A stretch of DNA of 64,000 nucleotides, from positions 62,001 to 126,000 of the forward strand of contig CACAWX010000001.1 of the NCBI GenBank assembly GCA_902536305.1, read 5' to 3'. The stretch comes from an uncultured Pelagibacteraceae bacterium. Lineage in GTDB: Bacteria > Pseudomonadota > Alphaproteobacteria > Pelagibacterales > Pelagibacteraceae. Within the stretch, counting starts at the first letter, position 1. The number at the start of each line of letters is the position of its first letter. Below the pieces are notes generated by a model. It searched no databases. It had not been told where the DNA came from and saw nothing but the letters and a program-made list of their open reading frames with translations. Positions 11,403 to 13,114 of this stretch are shown piece after piece. The position numbers were made by a program, and so were the translations under genes.

Positions 11403-11963
11403 ATGATAACCGCGGGTGTAGATGAAGTTGGTAGAGGATGTTTAGCAGGACCCGTAGTTTCAGCGGCTGTAATTTTAAAAAACTCGATAGATCTTAAACT
11501 GTTAAAAGACTCAAAAAAAATCACTTTCAAAAAAAGAATTGAAATTGCGAAACATATTAAGCTTAATTCAACTTATGCTGTGGGAATATCTTCAGTTGAA
11601 GAAATATTAAACTTAAATATCTTGCAAGCGACCTTACTCTCAATGAAAAGAGCAATAGATAAATTAATAATTAAACCAGAATTAATCCTAATTGATGGAA
11701 ATTTTGCACCAAAGGGCTTGAAAAATTTTAAAACTGTAATTAACGGAGATGAAAAAATTAAATCAATAAGCGCCGCTTCAATTATAGCTAAAGTTTTTAG
11801 AGATCAACTAATGATAAAATTATCCGAGGAGTTTAATAATTATGCTTGGGAGAGAAATTTTGGCTACGGTACTAAGGCTCATATGAACGCTTTAAAAAAA
11901 TTTGGAATAACTTCACATCACAGAAAAGGTTTTAAACCCATACACAAGATGTTGTCGAGTTAA
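11403..11963 (+). CDS. rnhB: ribonuclease HII
   Basis: Cleaves RNA in RNA-DNA hybrids and removes single misincorporated ribonucleotides. The active-site opening GVDEVGRGCLAGPVVSAAV supplies the D-E pair. LILIDGNF gives the third acidic residue, and SAASIIAKVFRDQ plus FGYGTKAH are the other conserved boxes. The length is 186 aa. It lies 8 bp after the uracil-DNA glycosylase gene, so the two repair genes are likely co-transcribed. An RNase HI (rnhA) is also present at 27.3 kb. Confidence 0.96.
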   Translation: MITAGVDEVGRGCLAGPVVSAAVILKNSIDLKLLKDSKKITFKKRIEIAKHIKLNSTYAVGISSVEEILNLNILQATLLSMKRAIDKLIIKPELILIDGNFAPKGLKNFKTVINGDEKIKSISAASIIAKVFRDQLMIKLSEEFNNYAWERNFGYGTKAHMNALKKFGITSHHRKGFKPIHKMLSS

Positions 11964-12040
11964 GACTCCCTAACACTAAAAGACTCTTTTTTTTACTAAA
12001 ATGGTTTGACCGTGGATTCAATTTAAGGTTGAATCTTTAT
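11964..12040 (+). promoter_or_regulatory. ccrM leader with four GANTC sites and an inverted repeat
   Basis: This 77-bp gap between rnhB and ccrM holds four GANTC sequences: GACTC at 11964-11968 and 11982-11986, GATTC at 12015-12019 and GAATC at 12031-12035. At about 30% GC, one site per roughly 360 bp is expected. The last two are the arms of a perfect 7-bp inverted repeat, GATTCAA-TTTAAGG-TTGAATC (12015-12035). Its loop contains an AAGG that could serve as the RBS for the ATG at 12041. GANTC is the methylation target of CcrM, and methylation-sensitive ccrM transcription is established in Caulobacter. Feedback control here is inferred. Confidence 0.65.
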
Positions 12041-13114
12041 ATGTCACAAATTATCAATCAGATTGTAAATGGAAACTCCCTAAAGGAAATAAAAAAAATT
12101 CCAGATAAATCTTTTGATTTAGTTTTCGCAGATCCACCATACAACATGCAAATAGGTGAAACTTTAACAAGGCCTGATGCTTCCAAAGTTAATGGAGTTA
12201 ATGACAAATGGGATCAGTTTAATAGTTTTAGAGAATACGATGAATTTTGTAAATCGTGGTTAAAAGAATGTAAAAGAATTTTAAAAGATAATGGAAGTAT
12301 TTGGGTTATAGGTTCTTATCATAATATTTTTCGATTAGGCTATCACTTGCAAAATTTAAATTATTGGCTTCTTAATGACGTCATATGGAGAAAAAACAAT
12401 CCAATGCCAAATTTTAGAGGGACAAGATTTACTAATGCGCATGAAACGTTGATTTGGGCTTCGAAGACAAAAAAATCGAAATACACTTTTAATTATCAAT
12501 CGCTAAAATGTTTTAATGATGATTTGCAGATGAGATCTGATTGGACTTTGCCAATTTGTAATGGAAAAGAAAGATTAAAAAAGAACGGAAAAAAAATTCA
12601 TTCAACACAAAAACCAGAGGCTCTTTTGCACAGGATTATTCTAGCTACAACTAATAAGGGCGACAATGTGTTTGATCCATTTTTAGGAACTGGAACAACA
12701 GCTGTTGTAGCAAAAAAATTAGGAAGAAATTTTTATGGAATTGAAAATGATGTTAAATATTTTAAAGCCGCCCAAGAAAGATTAAATAATACTAAAAAAA
12801 TTGAGGATGACTATTTAGATATAGTTGAAAACAATAAGTCTAAGCCAAGAATACCTTTTGGCTCTTTAGTGGAACTTGGGATATTAAAACCAGGAACTAC
12901 ATTATTTGACCCAAAAAAGAAAATTAATGCTAAAATTATGGTTGACGGCAGTATCAAATGTAAGCTGTCAGAGGGGTCTATTCATAAAGTTGCAGCTAAA
13001 ATAATGGGTGCTGCAAGTTATAACGGATGGACTTATTGGCATTGTGATATAAATGGATCAACAGTAGTTATTGATAGTTTGAGGCAAAAATTTATTTCGG
13101 AGACAAAAGCTTAG
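12041..13114 (+). CDS. ccrM: cell-cycle-type DNA adenine methyltransferase, GANTC (CcrM family)
   Basis: A beta-class N6-adenine methyltransferase: DPPYNM (about residues 31-36) comes before the SAM-binding FDPFLGTGTTAVVAKKLGR. The C-terminal extension of about 80 residues (PFGSLVELGILKPGTTLFD to the end) is the RAMA-like domain characteristic of CcrM, which in the Caulobacter enzyme takes part in DNA recognition. The track begins at TTG 12029, inside the leader inverted repeat; ATG 12041 (MSQIINQIV) is preferred and gives 357 aa, close to Caulobacter CcrM. It overlaps the convergent FAD-monooxygenase gene by 4 bp. No partner endonuclease is nearby, which fits an orphan regulatory methylase. 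Confidence 0.93.
   Translation: MSQIINQIVNGNSLKEIKKIPDKSFDLVFADPPYNMQIGETLTRPDASKVNGVNDKWDQFNSFREYDEFCKSWLKECKRILKDNGSIWVIGSYHNIFRLGYHLQNLNYWLLNDVIWRKNNPMPNFRGTRFTNAHETLIWASKTKKSKYTFNYQSLKCFNDDLQMRSDWTLPICNGKERLKKNGKKIHSTQKPEALLHRIILATTNKGDNVFDPFLGTGTTAVVAKKLGRNFYGIENDVKYFKAAQERLNNTKKIEDDYLDIVENNKSKPRIPFGSLVELGILKPGTTLFDPKKKINAKIMVDGSIKCKLSEGSIHKVAAKIMGAASYNGWTYWHCDINGSTVVIDSLRQKFISETKA

What the first reader, a model, noticed from the sequence alone, without database searches (positions are those of the whole stretch)
11964..12040. Four GANTC sites in the 77-bp leader of the GANTC methyltransferase gene
GANTC is expected about once per 360 bp at this composition, yet four occur in 77 bp directly before ccrM. 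Two come as GACTC and two as the GATTC/GAATC pair. This strongly suggests that CcrM methylation feeds back on its own promoter, as known in Caulobacter, and that the circuit survived genome streamlining.
Basis: partly seen in the sequence, partly recalled or inferred. Interest (0 to 1): 0.66.

Follow-up and report, generated by a model that had tools for sequence, protein, structure and literature searches.

The report
GANTC sites inside ccrM's own promoter
In this SAR11 ocean bacterium the gene for the DNA-methylating enzyme CcrM has that enzyme's own target sites built into its promoter, a layout kept across SAR11 and much of the Alphaproteobacteria, which suggests the enzyme's marks help set its own production.

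Summary
Four GANTC sites fill the 77 bp between rnhB and ccrM, although GANTC is about two-fold depleted in this window. In 240 kb of the same contig this gap holds 4 of 18 intergenic GANTCs. In up to 20 relatives, ccrM averages 2.9 GANTC in its upstream 80 bp; 22 other genes average about 0, two explained exceptions aside.

The gap is probably a core promoter rather than a transcribed leader: an AT-rich UP-like stretch, an invariant TTGACC, a 17-bp spacer, TTGAAT, then ATG six bases later, so the mRNA is probably leaderless. Sites 3 and 4 are the outer edges of an element invariant in 94 distinct genus leaders. Sites 1 and 2 are only patchily conserved.

Most SAR11 and many other alphaproteobacterial ccrM promoters have TTGAC-GANTC-GANTC, usually with the second GANTC abutting the -10 at a fixed offset; the window's genus has a rearranged variant. 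SAR11 keeps GcrA, the methyl-GANTC reader; Pelagibacter reportedly lacks CtrA. Methylation-dependent self-regulation through GcrA is the best explanation; its sign is inferred. A GcrA-ccrM link was already predicted class-wide. New, as far as I found: the fixed geometry, the SAR11 variant, and its retention when ftsB lost its GANTC promoter.

The parts
11403..11963 (+). rnhB (ribonuclease HII); its stop codon abuts GANTC site 1
   Evidence: ORF, Pfam RNase_HII E=1.2e-40
11964..11968 (.). GANTC site 1 (GACTC), directly after the rnhB stop
   Evidence: present in 62 of 94 distinct genus leaders
11982..11986 (.). GANTC site 2 (GACTC), upstream edge of the T tract
   Evidence: present in 55 of 94
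11987..12001 (+). UP-element-like stretch: T tract 11987-11994 and A tract 11998-12001 upstream of the -35
   Evidence: central T-tract columns 90-94 of 94 and A-tract columns 86-94 of 94; the UP-element comparison is from general knowledge
12006..12011 (+). -35 hexamer TTGACC
   Evidence: TTGAC 94/94, last C 93/94 in the genus; TTGAC also in other SAR11 and alphaproteobacterial ccrM leaders
12015..12019 (.). GANTC site 3 (GATTC) in the -35/-10 spacer, left edge of the dyad
   Evidence: GANTC kept in 86/94
12016..12034 (.). Imperfect dyad core ATTCAATTT-NNN-GTTGAAT spanning spacer and -10
   Evidence: 15 of 16 fixed columns are 94/94 and one is 93/94
12029..12034 (+). Probable -10 hexamer TTGAAT, 17 bp after the -35; poor match to TATAAT
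   Evidence: spacing and invariance; 17-bp spacing also in the sister lineages
12031..12035 (.). GANTC site 4 (GAATC), overlapping the probable -10
   Evidence: GANTC kept in 86/94
12041..13114 (+). ccrM, 357 aa, GANTC adenine methyltransferase; predicted transcription start at about the A of ATG
   Evidence: best PDB match 6PBD C. crescentus CcrM, E=4.1e-134; Pfam N6_N4_Mtase and RAMA

Best explanation
The 77 bp is the sigma70 promoter of ccrM, with CcrM's own methylation sites built into its core. Site 3 lies between the -35 and -10 and site 4 overlaps the -10, and the mRNA is probably leaderless. GcrA, the sigma70 partner that reads methylated GANTC, most likely helps RNA polymerase open this weak-looking -10 when the sites are methylated. 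The amount of CcrM would then depend on the methylation state of its own promoter, which each replication fork turns from full to half methylated. [quoted passage not shown] Inferred: GcrA binding, the direction of the effect (activation somewhat more likely than repression), the -10 and the transcription start.
For: Sites 3 and 4 are kept in 86/94 leaders each, both in 80/94, within an element that is otherwise essentially invariant. The genus-specific element with its -35 occurs once per genome, at ccrM, in the 18 genomes where the pattern was found. The GANTC density upstream of ccrM is unmatched by 22 neighbouring genes. GANTC inside the -35/-10 region recurs in SAR11 family f2 and genus g6 and in many other alphaproteobacterial ccrM promoters. 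At least 35 of 103 listed non-SAR11 ccrM genes have TTGAC-GANTC-GANTC, 31 of 35 with the same total length of 24 bp. GcrA is found in the own genome and in 50 of 61 genomes searched, and the own copy has both the DNA-binding and the sigma-binding domain. Published: GcrA binds methylated promoters (PMC3667746) and speeds open-complex formation (PMC7403470); Caulobacter cell-cycle promoters with GANTC between -35 and -10 form one timed group (PMC4287350); ccrM is a predicted core GcrA target across the class (PMC7987155).
Against: No expression, binding or methylation data for these sites were available. By inspection, none of the four sites matches the extended Caulobacter GcrA motif YGAKTCG, and PMC7987155 reported few confident GcrA targets in Pelagibacter. 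Two leaders have lost both promoter GANTCs yet keep the rest of the element, and some SAR11 genera (g5, part of g8) have no GANTC in the ccrM core promoter but still have GcrA. The dyad core is more conserved than the GANTC-defining bases, so another protein may bind there.
Confidence: 0.6

Rival explanations
1. The invariant dyad ATTCAATTT-N3-GTTGAAT is the operator of an unknown dimeric regulator of ccrM. The GANTCs at its edges are incidental or only modulate that protein's binding.
For: The core is invariant in essentially all 94 leaders, while the outer G and C that make GANTC are 86/94 each. Dyads of the same form (TTCWAY-N5-GTTGAA) without GANTC lie just before ATG in genera g5, g8 and g11. 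Two leaders lack both GANTCs.
Against: 92 of 94 leaders keep at least one of the two GANTCs, although G and C are only 12% and 16% of the upstream bases, and the flanking non-core bases drift. Other lineages keep GANTC in the same promoter without this dyad. No regulator is known for it.
Confidence: 0.25
2. Negative, replication-coupled loop: full methylation silences the promoter, and half methylation after fork passage turns it on, as proposed for Caulobacter ctrA P1. This shares the promoter anatomy of the best explanation and differs in sign.
For: The m6A positions of site 4 fall inside the probable -10. The earlier ctrA P1 model has half methylation as the permissive state and full re-methylation as silencing (PMC3667746). 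In SAR11 strain NP1 nearly all GANTCs are fully methylated (PMC9516812).
Against: GcrA binds fully methylated sites better (PMC3667746). An Agrobacterium promoter tested in Caulobacter needed a methylatable GANTC for activity (PMC11514494). Sequence alone cannot set the sign.
Confidence: 0.25
3. The cluster is a chance or compositional feature without function.
For: In a single window the cluster is only moderately unlikely (P about 0.01 to 0.05). Sites 1 and 2 are not better conserved than their flanks.
Against: Conservation of sites 3 and 4, uniqueness among neighbouring genes, and the same arrangement in distant Alphaproteobacteria.
Confidence: 0.03

Closest known systems
GcrA/CcrM-regulated promoters of Caulobacter crescentus (mipZ, podJ, ctrA P1)
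   Same: GANTC within a sigma70 promoter, often between -35 and -10; CcrM and GcrA both present
   Different: Here the target is ccrM itself, site 4 overlaps the probable -10, the mRNA is probably leaderless, and the flanks do not match YGAKTCG
ccrM promoter of Caulobacter crescentus
   Same: Same gene; methylation of GANTC suggested to affect it (PMC3973325)
   Different: Activated by CtrA there; ctrA is reported absent from Pelagibacter (PMC2877005)
Class-wide prediction of ccrM as a core GcrA target (PMC7987155)
   Same: Predicts GcrA control of ccrM across alphaproteobacterial orders
   Different: Scored an extended Caulobacter-type motif anywhere in a 300-bp region and found little in Pelagibacter; here the position relative to -35/-10 is fixed and SAR11 is included

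Membership tests
CcrM GANTC methyltransferase | Full-length similarity to C. crescentus CcrM including the C-terminal DNA-binding domain | tested here: met
   6PBD, residues 7-349, E=4.1e-134; RAMA domain
CcrM GANTC methyltransferase | DPPY motif and base-reading residues (R44, P45, Y93, H94, M122, R129, H134, R179, K187, T191, K193) | tested here: met
   All kept in the alignment; residues named in PMC6787082
CcrM GANTC methyltransferase | Curated NCBIfam equivalog cut-off for CcrM (NF050803, 830 bits) | tested here: not met
   560 bits, E=1.2e-168; this bars the strict equivalog label of that model, not membership of the wider family
CcrM GANTC methyltransferase | Methylates GANTC in the cell | not testable with these tools
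   Shown for other SAR11 (strain NP1, 3477 of 3482 sites fully methylated, PMC9516812), not for this genome
GcrA/CcrM-regulated promoter | GANTC within the -35/-10 region of a sigma70 promoter | tested here: met
   Sites 3 and 4; the -10 assignment is inferred
GcrA/CcrM-regulated promoter | GcrA encoded in the same genome | tested here: met
   G000:C1:134848-135282, E=6.4e-40; matches C. crescentus GcrA structures 7YE1, 5YIU, 5YIX
GcrA/CcrM-regulated promoter | Extended motif YGAKTCG of active Caulobacter targets | tested here: not met
   By inspection none of the four sites in the window fits (sequence)
GcrA/CcrM-regulated promoter | GcrA occupancy and methylation-dependent expression | not testable with these tools
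   No ChIP, reporter or transcription-start data available
CtrA-activated ccrM promoter (Caulobacter type) | CtrA present | not tested
   Literature only: no ctrA ortholog in Pelagibacter (PMC2877005)

The most novel reading that the evidence does not exclude
In the streamlined SAR11 family, the CcrM-GcrA pair has shrunk to a minimal self-targeting epigenetic loop without CtrA. The ccrM promoter is one of very few conserved methyl-GANTC promoters left, and in the window's genus it was rebuilt so that a methylation site lies in the -10 of a leaderless gene.
Probability: 0.3. Interest if true: 0.7.

Novelty: new variant of a known kind. Interest (0 to 1): 0.5.

Why it matters
SAR11 bacteria are among the most abundant cells on Earth and have very few regulators. 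A conserved promoter in which a DNA methyltransferase's sites sit at its own -35/-10 would be a simple, testable epigenetic feedback loop, and would show which part of the alphaproteobacterial cell-cycle network survives extreme genome reduction. The fixed spacing across the class gives a concrete definition of a methylation-read promoter.

Tried and rejected
RNA structure or riboswitch: no Rfam match above noise. Intrinsic terminator of rnhB: none found. The consensus promoter scan missed this promoter because its -10 lacks A at position 2. A wider regulon for the dyad: in 41 genus genomes the dyad pattern matches mostly ccrM, with scattered other hits whose variable bases differ. Overall intergenic enrichment of GANTC: not seen on this contig (18 observed, 17.3 expected); instead coding sequence is depleted (338 against 632). 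Two apparently conserved upstream GANTCs at neighbouring genes were a tRNA T-loop and the coding end of a preceding gene. Sites 1 and 2 as selected elements: not separable from flanking conservation.

Full report
OBSERVATION. The four GANTC sites are exactly where reported, in the 77 bp between rnhB (ends 11963) and ccrM (ATG 12041). By scan statistics over all sequence it is only moderately unlikely (P 0.013 for the window, 0.045 for the 240-kb contig). Within intergenic sequence it is much less likely: 4 of 18 intergenic GANTCs in 77 of 9,561 bp. In up to 20 relatives the 80 bp before ccrM carry 2.90 GANTC on average, at least two in 90%. Of 22 other genes in the same region all but two average 0 to about 0.2; the two exceptions are a tRNA T-loop and the coding end of a preceding gene.

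ANATOMY. In 94 distinct leaders of the same genus the region reads: T tract, A tract, TTGACC, three free bases, gATTCAATTT, three variable bases, GTTGAATc, then the ATG. TTGAC is invariant. Seventeen bases after TTGACC comes TTGAAT, and the ATG follows six bases later in the window, which fits a -35, a -10 and a start of transcription at or near the ATG. In SAR11 family f2 the same TTGACC is followed after 17 bp by CATATT and by an ATG at nearly the same distance. I therefore call the stretch a core promoter of a probably leaderless gene; this is inference from spacing and conservation, not a mapped start. The -10 is a poor one (TTGAAT), which would suit an activator-dependent promoter.

WHICH SITES MATTER. 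Sites 3 and 4 are GANTC in 86 of 94 leaders each, both in 80, neither in 2. Sites 1 and 2 are present in 62 and 55 of 94, no better conserved than their flanks. The dyad core is more conserved than the outer bases that complete GANTC, so the element has a function beyond methylation: at least as the -10, possibly as a protein site.

BEYOND THE GENUS. In SAR11 genus g6 the promoter is TTGACC, a GANTC 2-3 bp after the hexamer, and a second GANTC whose TC starts the -10 (TCTAAT or TCTACT), in all 14 leaders read. In family f2 there is a GATTC or GAATC in the spacer (absent in genus g3) and a GAATC whose C starts the -10 CATATT. Genera g5, g7, g8 and g11 keep one or none in the core promoter. Outside SAR11, at least 35 of 103 listed ccrM genes have TTGAC-GANTC-GANTC just upstream, 31 of them with total length 24 bp, placing the second GANTC at one fixed offset from the -35 and abutting a -10 that is mostly of the form CANNAT. 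The hit list was truncated, so 35 is a lower bound. Genus g10 has TTGACT, 17 bp, TCTAAT and then a dyad like the window's (L102). The window's genus looks as if about 17 bp were lost, bringing the dyad into the spacer and making its right half the new -10. This history is a reading of few sequences.

READERS AND WRITERS. CcrM matches C. crescentus CcrM along its length and keeps the residues that read GANTC (PMC6787082). It falls below NCBIfam's strict equivalog cut-off. GcrA is encoded about 9 kb beyond the window's end and is found in 50 of 61 genomes searched, 14 of the 16 most complete ones. It aligns with the DNA-binding and sigma-binding domains of C. crescentus GcrA. Pelagibacter is reported to lack ctrA (PMC2877005).

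MECHANISM. GcrA binds methylated GANTC promoters (PMC3667746) and speeds open-complex formation (PMC7403470). In Caulobacter, cell-cycle promoters with GANTC between -35 and -10 form one timed group (PMC4287350). The simplest reading is that CcrM methylates its own promoter and GcrA reads the mark. Activation is somewhat more likely than repression, but sequence cannot decide. Against it: the flanks do not fit YGAKTCG, and some SAR11 genera with GcrA lack GANTC in this promoter.

NOVELTY. That methylation affects ccrM was suggested for Caulobacter (PMC3973325), and GcrA control of ccrM was predicted across the class (PMC7987155). I found no prior report, in the open-access papers searched, of the fixed -35/-10 geometry, the SAR11 variant or the leaderless arrangement; subscription papers could not be checked.

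STREAMLINING. The septum gene ftsB has a double-GANTC promoter in 8 of 9 non-SAR11 regions fetched (those regions were chosen by the pattern, so this is not a frequency). In SAR11 family f2 two of three ftsB leaders still carry two GANTCs near the start and the third one. In the f1 genomes examined ftsB follows the preceding gene with only a few bases between, so that promoter is gone. ccrM kept its sites while ftsB did not.

Noticed in passing
L224-L230, L232 (non-SAR11 Alphaproteobacteria); L238, L244, L245 (SAR11 f2): A second recurrent double-GANTC promoter, TTGAC-GAATC-GTGATTC, often a GAATCAC-N3-GTGATTC dyad, lies directly before the roughly 105-aa FtsB/DivIC-like septum gene; lost in SAR11 family f1, where ftsB abuts the preceding gene.
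   Followed up: partly
window 1-64000; contig G000:C1: GANTC is about two-fold depleted in coding sequence (338 observed, 632 expected) but not in intergenic sequence (18 against 17.3).
   Followed up: yes
G000:C1 220389-222563, minus strand (outside the window): katG (catalase/peroxidase) has a GAATC between a TTGACT and an AT-rich -10-like stretch, the only other core-promoter-like GANTC seen on the contig.
   Followed up: no
L104-L108, L111, L113 (SAR11 genera g5, g8, g11): A dyad TTCTAC/G-N5-GTTGAA without GANTC lies just before the ccrM ATG; binding partner unknown.
   Followed up: partly
G063:C1:661830 and 672644; G086:C1:243804: An identical TTGACTAAGATTCTTTAATTTGATTC occurs twice in one SAR11 genome and once in another, away from ccrM.
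   Followed up: no
L114/L115 (G162): ccrM of this complete genome is split into two overlapping frames, apparently a frameshift near its C-terminal domain.
   Followed up: no
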